A DNA stretch of 64,000 nt from Pseudarthrobacter siccitolerans (lineage in GTDB: Bacteria; Actinomycetota; Actinomycetes; Actinomycetales; Micrococcaceae), in NCBI RefSeq assembly GCF_030823375.1, contig NZ_JAUSXB010000001.1, forward strand, positions 2,604,001 through 2,668,000. The letters run 5' to 3'. Of this stretch, positions 23,287 to 31,930 are shown piece by piece. The translations under genes and the position numbers were made by a program. Positions within the stretch are counted from its first letter, which is position 1, and the number at the start of each line of letters is the position of its first letter. The notes beneath the pieces are model-generated. The model was not told where the DNA came from and searched no databases. It saw nothing but the letters and a program-made list of their open reading frames with translations.

Positions 23287-23477
23287 GATCCTTCGCAGGC
23301 TGATAAACCAGTGAGTGCTGCAGCGAGAGCTGCATCACCATCCCAGGTCTCAGCTACTCCCGAATCATCACTCGGAACCCTCAAACCGCCATGCTCCGCC
23401 GTTGGTGCGTCGCGTGTTTGAATCGTTCCAACGTTCCTGGGTTACCGCTTTGCCACCGCTCATCGAAGGAGATGTCC

Positions 23478-26400
23478 GTGAACAAATCCCCGCAATCAAC
23501 CCCACAGCCCCAGCAACCACCACCACTCCGGCAGCGCAGGATCCCTGCTGGCGCCAAAGCCGTGACAGCCGCCGTGGCCTCAGCTGCCATCGCCTTCACC
23601 GGGCTCCCGGCGGTCCAGGCCGACACCGCGCTGCCGCCGGTGGGAAGCGGGTTCAAGTTCGATTTCGGCCCCGGCGCCACGGCGGACGGCTACACGGCTG
23701 TAGCCGCTGGCACGCAGTACTCGGCGGCCACGAAATATGGCTTTACCGACACGTCGGGCACCTCCGGCGTGGACCGCGCCACGGGCGATCCGCTCCGTTC
23801 TGACTTTGTCCAAGCCCAGGGAAGCACCTTCCTGGTGGACCTGCCCAACGGCGACTACACCGTCAAACTCATTGCCGGCGATGCCGCGGAGGCCACGAAC
23901 ATCGCCATTACTGCCGAAACCATGGCGAAGGTGCAGGCCACGGACAAGGCCGCCGGCCAGTACCTGGAAATGGAATTCCCCATTTCGCTGGTGGACGGCC
24001 AGCTCAACCTCGATTTCAGCGGCACGGCGGCCAAGATCAATTCGCTGGTCATCTCCGCCCGCGCTCCCCGCACCGCCACCACGGACCCCGGCGTCTATCT
24101 CGCCGGTGACTCAACGGTGCAGACCTACGACCCCGGCTTCGCCCCGCAGGCAGGGTGGGGCCAGATGATTGACCGCTACTTCGATGACAAGGTCTCCTTC
24201 AAGAACCACGCCATTGGCGGGCGCAGCTCCAAGAACTTCATCACCCAGGGCCGGCTGGACGAGATCCTGAGGGTCATTAACCCCGGCGACTACCTGATGG
24301 TCCAGTTCGGGCACAATGATGCCACGATCGGCGTCGACGACCGCTACGCCTCCCCCGCCGACTACAAGGAATACCTGCGCACGTACGTGAACGGTGCGCG
24401 CCAGCGCGGCGCAACCCCCGTCCTGGTCACCCCGGTGGGACGCCGGGACTACGACGAAGCCACTGGCAAGTTCAACGTCAGCTTCCCCGAGTACGTGGCG
24501 AAGATGCAGGAACTCGCCACCGAGGAGAACGTGGCCCTGGTGGACCTCTCCGCCTCGAGCCGCGCCTACTACGACGCCATCGGCCCGGAGGACACCAAGT
24601 CCGTCTTCCTGCACGTCGATGCCGGCGTCTATCCCAACCGGCCCACCGGCACGGTGGACAACACCCACTTCCAGGAATACGGTGCCATCCAGATCGCCCG
24701 GCTCGTGGCCGGCGGAGTGAAGCAGCTCAGTGTTCCGCTGGCCGCACGCGTCAAGGAGGTCACACCGCCGTCGTCCGTTCCTGCCAAGCCGCAGGGCCTG
24801 GTGGCCGGCAGCGTTTCCAACGCCGGGGCGCTGCTGAAGTGGCAGGCCGTTGAAGGCGCGGACATTTACAAGGTCTACCGGAAGCTGGCCTCCGAACCGG
24901 ACAGTGCATTCAAGCTGACCACCACCGCCACGGTGCCCACCGCCAACCTTGCAGGGCTGGCGGAAGGCACGGCCTACAACGTCCGGGTAGCAGCCATGAA
25001 CGGCAAGGGACTCTCCGAGCCGAGCGACACCCTGAGCGTCAGCACGAAGCAGGCGAAATACAAGTTCGACTTTGGGCCGGTGGGAGCACCGCTGGAACCC
25101 GGCTACACCGAAGTCAACCGCACCATGGCCTACACCCCCGAGCGGGGCTTCGGCTTCAAGGACATCTCCGGGCTGAGCGACCGGGACCGCGGCGCCGTGA
25201 CCAGCAACCTCCTGCGCGACTTCGTCCTCAGCAGCACCAGCTTCGAGTTCCAGCTCGACGTCCCCAACGGCACCTACGCCCTAAAGACCTACCACAGCGA
25301 CTGGATCGGCTCCACCCGGACCGACGTCGCCGCGGAAGGCACTCCCTACGGCCAGGTGTCCTCGAGCAGGGCGTCATCGGCAACCAAGATCATCAACCAG
25401 GTCCTGGTCTCCGACGGACAGCTCAACCTGACCATCAGCGGCTCCGGACAGCGGCTCAACGGCGTGGAAGTCACCCCGCTGCTGGTGGGACCCACCAACC
25501 TGCACACCTCTGCCGTCAATGCCGCTTCCGAGCCGCCCACCGTTGACCTCGCCTGGGACGCAGTGGCGGACGCCGCCAGCTACAAGGTGTTCCGCCAGGC
25601 CTCGTTCGAAGCCGAACCCCGGCTGATTGCGGAGAATGTCACAGCCGCGGCTTTCCAGGACACCACCGCCTTCGCCGGCCTGAAGTACAAGTACTTCGTC
25701 ACCGCGCTGGACAGCACAGGACTCGAATCGGTCCCCTCCAACACGGTGGAAACCGCCCTGGTGGATCCCAATACCCCTGTCCCGGCGGCCACTGGGAAGG
25801 TGGACGTCGAGGCAGTGGAGAAGACAAGCGTCACGCTTAAGTGGCAGAAGGTGGCTGGGGCAGCCGTCTACCAGGTTTACCGGTCCACCTCCCCCGACGG
25901 TCCTTTTGACTACGTGGGCCGGGCCACCGAGGTGAACTACACGGACTTCACTGTGCTGACCACCATCAAGTACTACTACCGTGTCACCACGCTGAACAAG
26001 GGCGGCGAATCCGCGCCCTCTCCGGTGGTGGGAACTGAGAAGGTCACGGTGGTGAACCGGCAGATGGAGAAGCTGGACCGCGCCCCCGTGGCATTGCTGA
26101 CCAGCGAAGGCGTCCGTGTGGGCTGGCGGATGCTCGGCCTTGATCCGGAGCAGATCGGCTTCCATGTGATCCGCGACGGCGTGCAGCTCACCGATGAGCC
26201 GATCCGCAGCAGCACCACCTTCCTTGATCCGGACGGAACCGCATCCTCCAAGTACGTCGTCAAGGCAGTGGGCAACGGCGGAGACCAGCTCACCGCGGAG
26301 TTCACGCCGCTGGCCCAGGACTACCTTGCCATCAAGCTGGACAAGCCTGCCGACGATTACACCAAGGACGGCCAGCCGTACAGCTACTCCGCTGGCGACT

Positions 26401-27872
26401 CGAGCGTGGCTGACCTGGACGGCGACGGCACGTACGAAGTCCTGCAGATGTGGTCCCCGTCCAACTCCAAGGACAACTCGCAGGCAGGCTACACCGGCAC
26501 TGTCTACGTGGATGCCTACAGGATGGACGGCACCAGGCTCTGGCGCATCAACATGGGCCCGAACATCCGTGCCGGCGCCCACTACACCCAGCTGCTCGCC
26601 TACGACTTCGACGGCGACGGCAAGGCTGAAGTTGCGATGAAGACGGCGGACGGTACGCGTGACGCGGCCGGCACCGTGATCGGCAACCCGAGCGCCGATT
26701 ACCGCAACAGCAGCGGGTACGTGCTCACGGGCGACGAGTTCCTGACCGTGTTCCACGGTGCCACCGGCACGGTGATGGACACGGTGAAGTACGACCCGCC
26801 GCGCGGAGACGTGGGCGCCTGGGGTGACACCTACGGAAACCGGGTGGACCGCTTCCTTGGCGCCGTGGCCTACCTGGACGGCGAACACCCTTCCATGATG
26901 TTCAGCCGCGGCTACTACACACGGGCGGTTCTGGCCACCTACGACCTGGTGGGCGGCAAGATCATCAAACGCTGGGTCTTCGATTCGGATATTGCCGGCG
27001 CCCAGTACCGGGGCCAGGGCAACCACAACCTGTCCGTGGTGGATGTGGACGCTGACGGCAAGGACGAGTTTGTCTTCGGTTCCATGACCATCGACGACAA
27101 CGGCAAGCCGCTGTACACCACCGGCCTGGGCCACGGTGATGCTATCCACACCAGTGACCTTGACCCGTCCCGTCCCGGGCTCGAGACGTTCGCCGCCCAC
27201 GAGGAAATGGGTTCCAGCGGCAACAGGGGTGCCACCTTCCGCGATGCACGTACCGGCGAAGTGCTGTGGAGCATCCCGGCCACCAAGGACACCGGACGTG
27301 CTGCGGCGGGAGACATCGACCCCCGTTTCCCGGGTGCGGAGGGATGGGCCATCGGCGGTGACGCTGCCTGGAACTCCCCGGTGGGTGAACTGCGGTCCGC
27401 CAAGGGCCAGCTGATCGCGAACAAGATCCCGGCAGCCAACTTCCTTGCCTGGTGGGACGGCGACCTGCTGCGTGAGATCGTGGACCACGACTGGAATGCA
27501 TCGGCCAACACGGGAACACCGAGCATCGCCAAGTGGAACTGGGAGACCCAGTCCAGCGACCGGCTGCTGACCGCCACCGGCGCGAAATCCAACAACAGCA
27601 CCAAGGGCACGCCCGCCATCCAGGCAGACCTCCTGGGTGACTGGCGCGAGGAGATCGCCTGGCCTTCGGCCGACAGCACGGAGCTGCGGATCTACACCAC
27701 CACCGCAGGCACCGACGTCCGGCTCCGCACGCTGATGCATGATCCGGCGTACCGCCTCTCGGTGGCCCGCGAGAACATCTCCTACAACCAGCCGCCGCAT
27801 CCCAGCTTCTATATTGGGGAGGGCATGGAACGCCCGGCCCAGCCGGACATCGTGTACACCCGCGCCGGCTAG
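23478..27872 (+). CDS. Secreted rhamnogalacturonan acetylesterase-PL11 lyase fusion
   Basis: A 1464-residue secreted enzyme for pectin rhamnogalacturonan-I. Order: signal peptide (about residues 15-47); malectin-like module (59-194, KFDFGPGATADGYT); CE12 SGNH esterase (205-420) with Ser212 in GDSTVQTYD, Asn280 in FGHNDA and Asp394/His397 in DNTHF; FnIII (434-522); second malectin-like module (527-668, KFDFGPVGAPLEPGYT); two FnIII (669-858); PL11 lyase (865-1464) with DLDGDG and DFDGDGK calcium-binding loops and YRGQGNHNLSVVDVDADGKDEF. GTG 23478 is chosen since AAGGAG (23466-23471) directly abuts ATG 23472 but is 6 nt from GTG. Esterase and lyase are normally separate proteins. Confidence 0.9.
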   Translation: MNKSPQSTPQPQQPPPLRQRRIPAGAKAVTAAVASAAIAFTGLPAVQADTALPPVGSGFKFDFGPGATADGYTAVAAGTQYSAATKYGFTDTSGTSGVDRATGDPLRSDFVQAQGSTFLVDLPNGDYTVKLIAGDAAEATNIAITAETMAKVQATDKAAGQYLEMEFPISLVDGQLNLDFSGTAAKINSLVISARAPRTATTDPGVYLAGDSTVQTYDPGFAPQAGWGQMIDRYFDDKVSFKNHAIGGRSSKNFITQGRLDEILRVINPGDYLMVQFGHNDATIGVDDRYASPADYKEYLRTYVNGARQRGATPVLVTPVGRRDYDEATGKFNVSFPEYVAKMQELATEENVALVDLSASSRAYYDAIGPEDTKSVFLHVDAGVYPNRPTGTVDNTHFQEYGAIQIARLVAGGVKQLSVPLAARVKEVTPPSSVPAKPQGLVAGSVSNAGALLKWQAVEGADIYKVYRKLASEPDSAFKLTTTATVPTANLAGLAEGTAYNVRVAAMNGKGLSEPSDTLSVSTKQAKYKFDFGPVGAPLEPGYTEVNRTMAYTPERGFGFKDISGLSDRDRGAVTSNLLRDFVLSSTSFEFQLDVPNGTYALKTYHSDWIGSTRTDVAAEGTPYGQVSSSRASSATKIINQVLVSDGQLNLTISGSGQRLNGVEVTPLLVGPTNLHTSAVNAASEPPTVDLAWDAVADAASYKVFRQASFEAEPRLIAENVTAAAFQDTTAFAGLKYKYFVTALDSTGLESVPSNTVETALVDPNTPVPAATGKVDVEAVEKTSVTLKWQKVAGAAVYQVYRSTSPDGPFDYVGRATEVNYTDFTVLTTIKYYYRVTTLNKGGESAPSPVVGTEKVTVVNRQMEKLDRAPVALLTSEGVRVGWRMLGLDPEQIGFHVIRDGVQLTDEPIRSSTTFLDPDGTASSKYVVKAVGNGGDQLTAEFTPLAQDYLAIKLDKPADDYTKDGQPYSYSAGDSSVADLDGDGTYEVLQMWSPSNSKDNSQAGYTGTVYVDAYRMDGTRLWRINMGPNIRAGAHYTQLLAYDFDGDGKAEVAMKTADGTRDAAGTVIGNPSADYRNSSGYVLTGDEFLTVFHGATGTVMDTVKYDPPRGDVGAWGDTYGNRVDRFLGAVAYLDGEHPSMMFSRGYYTRAVLATYDLVGGKIIKRWVFDSDIAGAQYRGQGNHNLSVVDVDADGKDEFVFGSMTIDDNGKPLYTTGLGHGDAIHTSDLDPSRPGLETFAAHEEMGSSGNRGATFRDARTGEVLWSIPATKDTGRAAAGDIDPRFPGAEGWAIGGDAAWNSPVGELRSAKGQLIANKIPAANFLAWWDGDLLREIVDHDWNASANTGTPSIAKWNWETQSSDRLLTATGAKSNNSTKGTPAIQADLLGDWREEIAWPSADSTELRIYTTTAGTDVRLRTLMHDPAYRLSVARENISYNQPPHPSFYIGEGMERPAQPDIVYTRAG

Positions 27873-29030: not shown

Positions 29031-30422
29031 TTAGAAGCCGCCGCCACCGCTGCCACCCGCGTCGCCCGCCATATTGGCGAAGCGGGAATAGTGGCCCTGG
29101 AAGGCCACCACGATGTCCTTGGTGGGACCGTTACGGTGCTTGGCCACCAGGATGTCCGCTTCTCCGGCGCGGGGGGATTCTTTGTCGTAGACGTCCTCGC
29201 GGTGCAGCAGGATCACCATGTCCGCGTCCTGCTCAATGGAGCCGGATTCACGGAGATCGGACACCATGGGCCGCTTGTCCGAGCGCTGTTCCGAACCACG
29301 GTTCAGCTGGGACAGGGCAATGACGGGGACCTGGAGTTCCTTGGCCAGCAGTTTCAGTGCACGGGAGAATTCGGAAACTTCCTGCTGCCGCGACTCTACC
29401 TTCTTGCCGGAGCTCATCAGCTGAAGGTAGTCGAGGATTACCAGCTTGAGATCATGCTGCTGCTTCAGCCGGCGGCACTTGGCCCGGATTTCCATCAGGG
29501 ACATATTGGGACTGTCATCGATGAACAGCGGGGCATCGTTCATCCGGCCCATGGTGGTGGCGATCTTGGACCACTGCTCATCCTTGATGGTTCCCTTGCG
29601 GAGGTCCTGCAGCCCAATGGTGGCCTCGGCGGAGAGCAGGCGCATGGCAATCTCGTTCCGGCCCATTTCGAGCGAGAACATCACGGTGGCCAGGTTGTTC
29701 TTGATAGCTGCGGAGCGGGCGAAATCCAGGGCGAAGGTTGACTTACCTACGGCGGGGCGCGCGGCAATAACGATCATCTGGCCGGGGTGGAGTCCGTGAG
29801 TGAGCTCATCGAGCTCGTAAAAGCCGGTGGGGACACCTGTCATGCCTTCACCACGGTGTCCGGATGCCTCGATTTCATCCACGGTGGACTCCATGACGTC
29901 CTTGAGCACCACATAATCCTCGGCGGTGCGCCGCTCGGCCACGGCGTAGACCTCGGCCTGGGCCTGGTTGACCAGATCCTCCACTTCGCCGTCCGAGCCG
30001 TAGCCCAGCTGGACAATCTTGGTGCCGGCATTCACGAGCCGCCGGAGGACAGCGCGTTCGGCAACGATCTCGGCGTAATAGCCGGCGTTTGCTGCGGTGG
30101 GAACGGTCTGGATCAGCTCGTGGAGGTAGGCGGGACCGCCGATCCGGTTGATCTCGGCACGCTTGGTGAGCTCGTCGGAGACGGTGACGGCATCCGCGGG
30201 CTCACCGCGGCCATACAGGTCAATGATGGCCTCGTAGATGGTTTCGTGCGCGGGGCGGTAGAAGTCCTGGCCGCGGAGGATTTCAACGACGTCGGCGATG
30301 GCGTCCTTGGACAGCATCATGCCGCCCAGAACCGACTGCTCGGCGGGAATATCCTGCGGAGGCTTCCGGCTCGCGTCCGATCCTCGGGTGGCCTCGACCG
30401 GGTCCAGATGCGCTATAGACAA
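29031..30422 (-). CDS. dnaB: Replicative DNA helicase DnaB
   Basis: A 463-residue hexameric helicase. The N-terminal primase-interaction domain (QSVLGGMMLSKDAIADV) leads to a RecA-like core with Walker A ARPAVGKST, Walker B VILDYLQLM, ALSQLNRGSEQR and the arginine-finger region. No intein interrupts it, although inteins are frequent at these motifs in actinobacterial DnaB. The start codon is TTG (30422-30420), supported by GGAGGA 8 nt upstream; no in-frame ATG fits. It is unwound-strand entry at the replication fork, loaded with DnaA/DnaC-type help. It lies upstream of a DnaA-box cluster. Confidence 0.96.
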   Translation of the reverse strand: MSIAHLDPVEATRGSDASRKPPQDIPAEQSVLGGMMLSKDAIADVVEILRGQDFYRPAHETIYEAIIDLYGRGEPADAVTVSDELTKRAEINRIGGPAYLHELIQTVPTAANAGYYAEIVAERAVLRRLVNAGTKIVQLGYGSDGEVEDLVNQAQAEVYAVAERRTAEDYVVLKDVMESTVDEIEASGHRGEGMTGVPTGFYELDELTHGLHPGQMIVIAARPAVGKSTFALDFARSAAIKNNLATVMFSLEMGRNEIAMRLLSAEATIGLQDLRKGTIKDEQWSKIATTMGRMNDAPLFIDDSPNMSLMEIRAKCRRLKQQHDLKLVILDYLQLMSSGKKVESRQQEVSEFSRALKLLAKELQVPVIALSQLNRGSEQRSDKRPMVSDLRESGSIEQDADMVILLHREDVYDKESPRAGEADILVAKHRNGPTKDIVVAFQGHYSRFANMAGDAGGSGGGGF

Positions 30423-30583: not shown

Positions 30584-31060
30584 TTATCCCCACTATCCAC
30601 AGGTTTTCCACAACGGATGCTTCCTGCAGGATGAGCGGTTTTCTCCAGCCCCGCCGAATGCTCTCTGTGAGCCGGCCCGGGCGCCGAAGAACAGGTACCC
30701 CGCTACGCTAGCCCCCAAGGGTCCAGCCACAAAGCCAGCAGGCGTCGAGGGGTGTGGATAACCTGTGCAGTACGGGGCATAGCTTGTGCACAGCCTGTGG
30801 GGAAACCTGTGGATACAAAAAAAGTTTACCTCCATGCAAGGCGCTGACCAGCGAAAACGCCGGTCCGGACGTGTGGAGTAAATATTTCTTCTGTGGAATT
30901 TCATCCACAGCGCGTGTCGCCCGAAGCTGCCAGAGAAACGCCCGCCATCGGTCCAAGCGGGGGCTGCGGCAGCTTTGTGGCCGCCCTCATATTCCACCCG
31001 GGACGTTAGCCCCGCTTCAAGCCGGCCTCCATGCGGCGAGGTGAATATTGCTGTGGATAA
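30584..31060. promoter_or_regulatory. Cluster of DnaA boxes outside oriC
   Basis: Seven 9-mers with 0-1 mismatch to TTATCCACA: plus 30584-30592, 30593-30601, 30604-30612 and 30901-30909; minus 30753-30761 (perfect), 30808-30816 and 31052-31060 (perfect). Weaker ones are at 30796-30804 and 30872-30880. The first three are nearly contiguous. AT-rich patches lie at about 30825-30840 and 30877-30900. The 660-bp gap (30423-31085) has no gene. It may regulate dnaB or titrate DnaA. True oriC should be beyond trxB. Confidence 0.8.
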
Positions 31061-31085: not shown

Positions 31086-31358
31086 ATGGGCGAACTACTG
31101 CTGGTCCTGTTGCCTGCGATCGTTTTGGTGGCGCTCATCTGGGGCCTTTTTACGGCCCTGAGGCCGCGCGACTCGGGAATGTCTGACGCCGAAAAATACC
31201 AGCGCCACCTGGCGGAGCGTTCTGCCCAGCATTACGCGGCGCAAGTCCAGGCTGCCACCGCTGCCCGGGCCCAGCTCGAGCGGAACACCATGCCCAGCCA
31301 GAACTCCCAGGCATCATCGGACCTGGCCGCTGCCAGGAAGCACATAGAACGGCGTTAG
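31086..31358 (+). CDS. Small membrane protein, 90 aa
   Basis: One N-terminal helix (MGELLLVLLPAIVLVALIWGLFTAL), then a helical, polar, charged segment (DAEKYQRHLAERSAQHYAAQVQAATAARAQLE) that could form a coiled coil. The ATG lies 6 nt past TAAGCT, and there is no ribosome site, so the message may be leaderless. The stop is 2 nt before the next gene, suggesting a coupled pair. Function unknown. Confidence 0.7.
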   Translation: MGELLLVLLPAIVLVALIWGLFTALRPRDSGMSDAEKYQRHLAERSAQHYAAQVQAATAARAQLERNTMPSQNSQASSDLAAARKHIERR

Positions 31359-31360
31359 AC

Positions 31361-31930
31361 ATGGAATCCCTTGTGGCCCCGGTCCTTATCCTCCTTGCAG
31401 TGGTAGCCGGAGTAATACTGGCCATCCGGACCATTGGCAGGCGGAAGGCCGCCCGCGGGGCTGAACCGGCAGCACCTGCCCCCACTCCCGCGGAGTTGGC
31501 GCGGACAGCCGCCGCCAGACTCTCGGAAGAAGAACATCGCAGGCTTTATGCCCTGATCGCCCAGGGGCAGGCGATGGCTGCGATCAAGCTGTACTACGAG
31601 GCCACCGGAGAGGGCCTTCGGGCGTCCCGTGATGCGGTGGGTGCGTTGGCGGCCCACCCCCAGCCCTACCGGGGTCCTGAGGCGCCTCCTGCCGCCGTTG
31701 AAGATGACGACGACGAGCCGCAGCGCTTCCCCTACCGCTACCGGGCCATCGCCAGCAAGGGCGACGTGACCCGGGAAGTCAGCAGCAACATGCTCAACGA
31801 CGAAATCTACGGCCGGATCCGCACACTGGCCCGCAATGGGGACACAGAGGCTGCGGTCACAGCGCTCACCCGGCATTCTGATATTTCCATGAAGCAGGCC
31901 CGGGAGTTCATCGAACTGCTGGACGACTGA
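31361..31930 (+). CDS. Membrane-anchored protein with L7/L12 C-terminal-like repeats
   Basis: A 189-residue protein with an N-terminal helix (residues 4-23, LVAPVLILLAVVAGVILAI), a linker, and two short helical modules. Module 1 (about 58-95, LYALIAQGQAMAAIKLYYEATGEGLRASRDAV) resembles the AIKxYrexTGxGLxeAkdaV helix-turn-helix of ribosomal L7/L12; module 2 (about 148-186, RIRTLARNGDTEAAVTALTRHSDISMKQAREFIELL) is a more degenerate copy. I infer a factor-binding role but cannot say which. Coupled to the preceding gene by a 2-nt gap. Confidence 0.7.
   Translation: MESLVAPVLILLAVVAGVILAIRTIGRRKAARGAEPAAPAPTPAELARTAAARLSEEEHRRLYALIAQGQAMAAIKLYYEATGEGLRASRDAVGALAAHPQPYRGPEAPPAAVEDDDDEPQRFPYRYRAIASKGDVTREVSSNMLNDEIYGRIRTLARNGDTEAAVTALTRHSDISMKQAREFIELLDD

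What the first reader, a model, noticed from the sequence alone, without database searches (positions are those of the whole stretch)
30584..31060. DnaA-box cluster upstream of dnaB, away from oriC
Seven near-consensus 9-mers, two perfect, lie in about 480 bp with AT-rich patches and no gene. The canonical origin should be past trxB, 30-40 kb away. This may be a DnaA-titration or regulatory locus like datA/DARS or the B. subtilis clusters.
Basis: partly seen in the sequence, partly recalled or inferred. Interest (0 to 1): 0.7.

Follow-up and report, generated by a model that had tools for sequence, protein, structure and literature searches.

The report
DnaA-box array at the dnaB promoter
The stretch is a cluster of binding sites for the replication initiator DnaA, placed just upstream of the likely promoter of the replicative helicase gene dnaB; a similar arrangement recurs in most related bacteria examined, so the initiator probably controls how much helicase the cell makes.

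Summary
Observation confirmed: seven 9-mers within one mismatch of TTATCCACA, two perfect, at 30584-31060; none of 300 simulated windows had more than two in 480 bp. They lie between dnaB and a small plus-strand ORF, about 46 kb from the dnaA-dnaN gap. Best reading: the DnaA-binding regulatory array of the dnaB promoter, rather than a free-standing datA/DARS/titration locus. Boxes lie just upstream of dnaB in 89 of 100 class genomes and 73 of 80 named loci (permuted motifs: about 3). Where rplI is far from dnaB, 266 boxes lie beside dnaB and 3 beside rplI. In 88 of 169 loci a TTG-16/18-TANNNT promoter starts within 35 bp of the last box (shuffles mean 4.5), at gaps repeating every 11 bp, as for an activator touching RNA polymerase. 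Five of seven operon-like dnaB loci lack boxes. Published mycobacterial data agree: DnaA binds upstream of dnaB, and a DnaA mutant binding less there under-expresses dnaB (PMC7738170). Against: two Nesterenkonia loci keep boxes 3 kb away. DnaA binding at dnaB is known; its class-wide extent and phasing appear new. Nothing was measured here.

The parts
29031..30422 (-). dnaB, replicative helicase, 463 aa, TTG start; the gene that the array most likely controls
   Evidence: Pfam DnaB_C 1.2e-107 and DnaB N-terminal domain 1.8e-36
30584..30612 (+). three one-mismatch DnaA boxes (30584 TTATCCCCA, 30593 CTATCCACA, 30604 TTTTCCACA) between the putative promoter and dnaB
   Evidence: some near relatives also have boxes at this place (L085; alignment)
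30705..30732 (-). putative dnaB promoter: TTGTGG (30732-30727), 16-bp spacer, TAGCGT (30710-30705); start of transcription predicted near 30698
   Evidence: the strict sigma-70 scan reported no site here
30753..30761 (-). perfect DnaA box TTATCCACA, 20 bp upstream of the -35 hexamer
30785..30792 (.). palindrome TGTGCACA (inside TTGTGCACA, two mismatches), a probable weak DnaA site readable on both strands
   Evidence: 34 copies in 64 kb upstream of dnaB in the 100-genome panel against 3 in 552 kb further away
30808..30816 (-). one-mismatch DnaA box GTATCCACA, 75 bp upstream of the -35 hexamer
30901..30909 (+). one-mismatch DnaA box TCATCCACA
31052..31060 (-). perfect DnaA box TTATCCACA at the far end of the array

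Best explanation
The array is the DnaA-binding regulatory region of the dnaB promoter. DnaA binds the boxes upstream of the -35 element, probably as an oligomer on one face of the DNA, and from positions about 4-8, 19-20, 30-31 or 41 bp before the -35 hexamer contacts RNA polymerase and most likely activates dnaB, so that the level of initiator sets the supply of helicase. The extra boxes between promoter and gene in this organism may let high DnaA repress the same promoter. Shown here: the boxes, their linkage to dnaB in most class genomes examined, a conserved promoter-like pattern, and the phasing. Shown by others in mycobacteria: DnaA binding upstream of dnaB, and lower dnaB expression in a DnaA mutant that binds less there. 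Inferred: binding in this organism, the sign of the effect, and contact with RNA polymerase.
For: Box clustering beyond chance. Boxes within -700 to -60 of dnaB in 89 of 100 panel loci and 73 of 80 named loci; 60 permuted motifs gave 3.5 and 3.3 loci on average, at most 21 and 19. In 98 loci with rplI more than 1.5 kb away, 266 boxes (92 loci) lie in the 600 bp before dnaB and 3 (2 loci) in the 600 bp after rplI. TTGNNN-N16-18-TANNNT in 109 of 169 non-redundant loci (shuffles mean 23.0, max 34), and within 35 bp of the nearest upstream box in 88 (mean 4.5, max 10). Gap phasing with an 11.0-bp period: R 0.79 for 24 nearest-box family-unique gaps, 0 of 3000 random sets; R 0.73 for all 47, 0 of 2000. 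Boxes absent in 5 of 7 operon-like loci against 13 of 174 others (Fisher p 1e-4). Mycobacterial binding and expression data (PMC7738170, passages).
Against: No binding or expression was measured in this organism. The strict promoter scan found nothing; the looser pattern was read off an alignment first and occurs in only 53 of the 100 panel loci. Loci are related, so the counts are not independent; family-unique gaps still include near-duplicates (63-66), and phasing of boxes with each other may add to the signal. The 8 opposite-strand gaps show no significant period (p 0.28). Eleven of 100 panel loci have no box within 900 bp. Two Nesterenkonia loci keep boxes 2.8-3.1 kb upstream, off the dnaB operon promoter, and Rothia has three one-mismatch sites 3.3-3.7 kb upstream. 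Box number falls weakly with distance from dnaA (rho -0.26, p 0.046, 58 genomes). Activation rather than repression rests on geometry and on one mutant in another genus.
Confidence: 0.75

Rival explanations
1. DnaA-titration or timing locus near the origin, like the DnaA-box clusters of Streptomyces coelicolor and Bacillus subtilis; its main effect would be to hold DnaA away from oriC, with dnaB merely next door.
For: Reviews say such clusters repress untimely initiation in those species (PMC5742627 and PMC4585315, passages). Box groups in this genome lie only around dnaA. Nesterenkonia keeps boxes away from dnaB. Box number falls weakly with distance from dnaA.
Against: Boxes stay with dnaB, not with rplI, sit in phase with a promoter, and tend to be lost when dnaB joins an operon. 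Loci 125-241 kb from dnaA still have 2-4 boxes.
Confidence: 0.15
2. A DARS- or datA-like site that reactivates or inactivates DnaA nucleotide state.
For: Non-coding box cluster outside oriC.
Against: No core arrangement, IHF or Fis site was looked for or found; spacing and strand of the boxes vary between families while the distance to the -35 is phased.
Confidence: 0.03
3. An origin of replication, or a second or back-up one.
For: Box cluster with a few AT-rich patches.
Against: dnaA, dnaN and boxes on both sides of dnaA lie about 46 kb away. GC skew is too noisy here to help either way.
Confidence: 0.02
4. A regulatory region of the divergent plus-strand ORF at 31086.
For: A perfect box ends 26 bp before its start codon.
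Against: Neighbours on that side differ between the families looked at, while boxes stay beside dnaB; the ORF has no Pfam match at E 1e-5.
Confidence: 0.03

Closest known systems
DnaA-bound region upstream of dnaB in Mycobacterium tuberculosis and M. smegmatis (Rv0057 region; Hicks et al. 2020, PMC7738170)
   Same: DnaA-binding region upstream of dnaB, outside oriC; one of five strong sites in vitro, with homologous sites bound in vivo in M. smegmatis; the DnaA variant that binds less there under-expresses dnaB (passages)
   Different: Binding in this organism is predicted only. The passages seen do not describe promoter phasing or conservation beyond mycobacteria and Caulobacter
DnaA-dependent transcription in Caulobacter crescentus (Hottes et al. 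2005)
   Same: Cited by PMC7738170 for DnaA binding upstream of dnaB
   Different: The paper was not read; another phylum
DnaA-box clusters of Streptomyces coelicolor (Smulczyk-Krawczyszyn et al. 2006)
   Same: Several DnaA boxes near but outside oriC in an actinobacterium; reported to repress untimely initiation (reviews)
   Different: Paper not held; whether one of its clusters is the dnaB-upstream one could not be checked; its proposed role is titration
Escherichia coli datA, DARS1, DARS2
   Same: Non-coding DnaA-box clusters outside oriC
   Different: They act on the DnaA nucleotide state; no such activity or core was tested here

Membership tests
DnaA-bound dnaB upstream region (mycobacterial type) | Cluster of DnaA boxes directly upstream of dnaB, outside oriC | tested here: met
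DnaA-bound dnaB upstream region (mycobacterial type) | DnaA binds it in vitro and in vivo | not testable with these tools
   Published for mycobacteria only
DnaA-bound dnaB upstream region (mycobacterial type) | dnaB expression responds to DnaA | not testable with these tools
   Published for one M. tuberculosis DnaA variant
DnaA-bound dnaB upstream region (mycobacterial type) | Boxes sit next to a promoter of dnaB | tested here: met
   Promoter-like pattern 20 bp from the nearest box in the window; 88 of 169 loci within 35 bp, shuffles mean 4.5. The pattern is computed; no transcript start was seen
DnaA-titration cluster (Streptomyces / Bacillus type) | Box cluster near, but outside, oriC | tested here: met
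DnaA-titration cluster (Streptomyces / Bacillus type) | Deletion raises initiation frequency | not testable with these tools
   No experiment possible
datA / DARS | Core box arrangement with IHF or Fis sites that changes the DnaA nucleotide state | not tested
   No model of the core was built or searched
oriC | Lies at dnaA-dnaN | tested here: not met
   About 46 kb away

The most novel reading that the evidence does not exclude
In most of the class Actinomycetes DnaA is a direct, helically phased activator of the replicative-helicase gene: a DnaA oligomer on an 11-bp ladder of half-sites touches RNA polymerase from class II (4-8 bp) or class I (19, 30, 41 bp) positions, giving a conserved feed-forward loop from initiator to helicase. 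The dnaB array belongs to a small conserved origin-proximal DnaA network that also includes boxes 3' of crgA.
Probability: 0.5. Interest if true: 0.75.

Novelty: new member of a known kind. Interest (0 to 1): 0.6.

Why it matters
If right, initiator level and helicase supply are wired together across much of a major bacterial class, and the wiring can be read from sequence: the phase between box and promoter predicts where DnaA must sit to act. That makes it directly testable whether DnaA works as an ordinary class I/II activator, and gives a sequence-level frame for the published finding that a DnaA variant binding less at dnaB under-expresses dnaB.

Tried and rejected
Rejected: chance clustering; the origin itself; regulation of the divergent ORF as the main role. 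GC skew around dnaA is too noisy to place the origin. The built-in promoter scan found no site; the looser pattern was taken from the alignment and then tested on all loci. The PF11638 search for dnaA was too insensitive (33 of 148 genomes) and was replaced by PF08299 (148 of 148). In other classes of the phylum 5 of 20 loci have a box before dnaB (11 boxes; permuted motifs mean 1.47, max 6), so the strong pattern is largely limited to this class. Of the 11 panel loci without a box, 10 carry a site with up to two mismatches ending in CCACA within 700 bp; no control was run for that. Rfam found nothing in the window. Literature: 'DnaA boxes' with 'upstream of dnaB' gave one paper; 'DnaA' with 'dnaB promoter' two, of which the cyanobacterial one names the promoter only as the driver of a tagged DnaB; DnaA with phrases on dnaB expression or transcription one unrelated paper; DnaA, 'DnaA boxes' and crgA none; one search gave 959 papers, the 20 listed not on DnaA at dnaB. 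The library holds open-licence papers only, so absence there is weak evidence. Papers seen as passages only: PMC7738170, PMC4285127, PMC3411110, PMC5742627, PMC4585315, PMC6478999; the rest as search listings.

Full report
What is there. The window is G000:C1:2604001-2668000 of a 4.5-Mb genome; the closest named DnaB proteins are from Arthrobacter (96-98% identity). Seven 9-mers within one mismatch of TTATCCACA, two of them perfect, lie at 30584-31060. The window holds 15 such sites in all; 300 Markov simulations gave 3.9 on average and never more than two in 480 bp. On one side is the start of dnaB (29031-30422, minus), on the other a 90-aa ORF from 31086 without a Pfam match.

Place in the chromosome. 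dnaA is at 2679691-2681115 and dnaN starts at 2681642, so the array is about 46 kb from the dnaA-dnaN gap. The 62 TTWTCCACA sites of the genome (29+33; reversed control 11+8) form groups of two or more within 1 kb only at the dnaB array, at 2670926-2671316, in the dnaA-dnaN gap and at 2698180-2699336. With one mismatch allowed, the gap upstream of dnaA joins them; the 45-aa ORF on its far side reads like ribosomal protein L34, rpmH (recognised by eye). Four of these five places thus correspond to four of the five strong DnaA sites of mycobacteria: oriC, rpmH-dnaA, upstream of dnaB and Rv0010c-Rv0011c; the fifth mycobacterial site is Rv3843c-RVnc0040 (PMC7738170, passages; that Rv0011c is crgA is recalled).

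Conservation. I examined 100 of the 146 class genomes with a DnaB match, chosen by me for spread over genera, and 80 named loci, the best 80 of 590 candidates. Counting sites within one mismatch from -700 to -60 of the DnaB alignment start, 89 of 100 and 73 of 80 loci have at least one, 69 and 70 at least two, 40 and 47 at least three; background is 0.044 and 0.036 per 640 bp; 60 permuted motifs hit 3.5 and 3.3 loci on average, at most 21 and 19. Most boxes lie 100-500 bp upstream of dnaB. In 98 loci where rplI, the usual neighbour, is more than 1.5 kb away, 266 boxes in 92 loci lie in the 600 bp before dnaB against 3 boxes in 2 loci in the 600 bp after rplI. So the array goes with dnaB. In 20 genomes from other classes of the phylum 5 have a box there.

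The promoter. Aligning twelve upstream regions of Arthrobacter and near kin shows conserved islands that are the boxes, plus a downstream island with a TTG-containing -35-like element and a TAnnGT hexamer in most rows. In the window this is TTGTGG-16-TAGCGT at 30732-30705 on the minus strand, 20 bp past the perfect box at 30753-30761. Over 169 non-redundant loci, TTGNNN-N16-18-TANNNT occurs in 109 (shuffles mean 23.0, max 34), and in 88 instances it begins within 35 bp of the nearest upstream box (mean 4.5, max 10). In the 100-genome panel alone it occurs in 53 loci. In these 88 the gap is 4-6 bp for boxes on the opposite strand and 7-8, 17-20 or 30-31 bp for boxes on the same strand; further gaps cluster at 39-41, 63-65 and 73-74 bp. 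Taking one value per family and only the nearest box, 24 same-strand gaps give R 0.79 at a period of 11.0 bp, reached by 0 of 3000 random sets; all 47 family-unique same-strand gaps give R 0.73, 0 of 2000, while the 8 opposite-strand gaps show no significant period. TGTGCACA is about 100 times denser upstream of dnaB (34 in 64 kb) than further away (3 in 552 kb); it occurs in 57 of 180 loci, and its gaps to the -35 (7, 19, 31, 40, 51-52, 62-64, then 137-198) fall mostly in the same series. This is the geometry expected of an activator touching RNA polymerase from one face of the helix.

Exceptions. By a crude gene call, seven loci have a same-strand ORF ending less than 130 bp before dnaB; five of these have no box, against 13 of 174 others (Fisher p 1e-4). 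Two Nesterenkonia loci keep boxes 2.8-3.1 kb upstream, off the presumed promoter of the dnaB operon, and Rothia has three one-mismatch sites 3.3-3.7 kb upstream; this speaks for some value of the boxes apart from dnaB. Box number falls weakly with distance from dnaA (58 of the 100 genomes, those whose positions on one contig I entered; 11-241 kb; rho -0.26, p 0.046), a hint in favour of titration, though the four loci 125-241 kb away still have 2-4 boxes.

Interpretation. The simplest account is that DnaA directly regulates dnaB, most likely as an activator. Binding at the mycobacterial counterpart is published, and the DnaA variant reported to bind less there uniquely under-expresses dnaB. 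In this organism boxes also lie between promoter and gene, so repression at high DnaA is possible. Titration is a possible by-product.

Novelty. DnaA binding upstream of dnaB is known in mycobacteria and, by citation, in Caulobacter, so the locus is a new member of a known kind. None of the ten literature searches (mostly seen as listings, open-licence papers only) showed a paper on the class-wide array or its phasing to the promoter; the Streptomyces cluster paper of 2006 could not be read, and one of its clusters may be the same site.

A related result. [quoted passage not shown] In 70 of the 147 class genomes with crgA (the 30 best-scoring and 40 chosen by me for spread), 62 have a box within 400 bp 3' of the crgA match and 1 has one within 400 bp 5' of it; permuted motifs hit 2.1 loci on average, at most 9. 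The window's own genome and its genus mate are among the 8 misses: their boxes begin 623 and 706 bp 3' of crgA, in the window's genome beyond a methyladenine-glycosylase gene. The site may therefore also be ancient in the class.

Noticed in passing
G000:C1:2698180-2699344 (L004:14180-15344); crgA loci L185-L214 and L235-L274: DnaA boxes 3' of crgA, the place that corresponds to the mycobacterial Rv0010c-Rv0011c DnaA site: 62 of 70 class loci have a box within 400 bp, 1 of 70 on the 5' side; in the window's own genome the nearest is 623 bp away. Many loci show a plus box and a minus box about 23 bp apart.
   Followed up: partly
G000:C1:2668843-2675785, just past the window's right end (L003): A gap of about 3 kb without ORFs of 100 aa between the trxA side and parB holds seven DnaA boxes (2670915-2671328) inside an array of eight parS-like sites, two perfect (parS consensus recalled).
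   Followed up: partly
30840-30861: A conserved non-box block (minus strand GTTTTCGCTGGTCAG; GTTTnCGCAGGTCAG-like in relatives) lies among the boxes in the Arthrobacter alignment; its binder is unknown.
   Followed up: no
31086-31358 and 31361-31930: Two plus-strand ORFs next to the array (90 and 189 aa) have no Pfam match at E 1e-5.
   Followed up: no
L004:12675-14123: A transposase-like protein (HTH_38 and integrase core domains) lies directly beside the DnaA-box group near crgA.
   Followed up: no
G000:C1:2849829-2850122 (L002): A second, weak match to the DnaA ATPase family in an open frame of 267 aa (E 2.2e-5).
   Followed up: no
23391-27872: A 1493-aa protein joins a GDSL lipase/acylhydrolase domain to rhamnogalacturonan lyase family 11 domains.
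   Followed up: no
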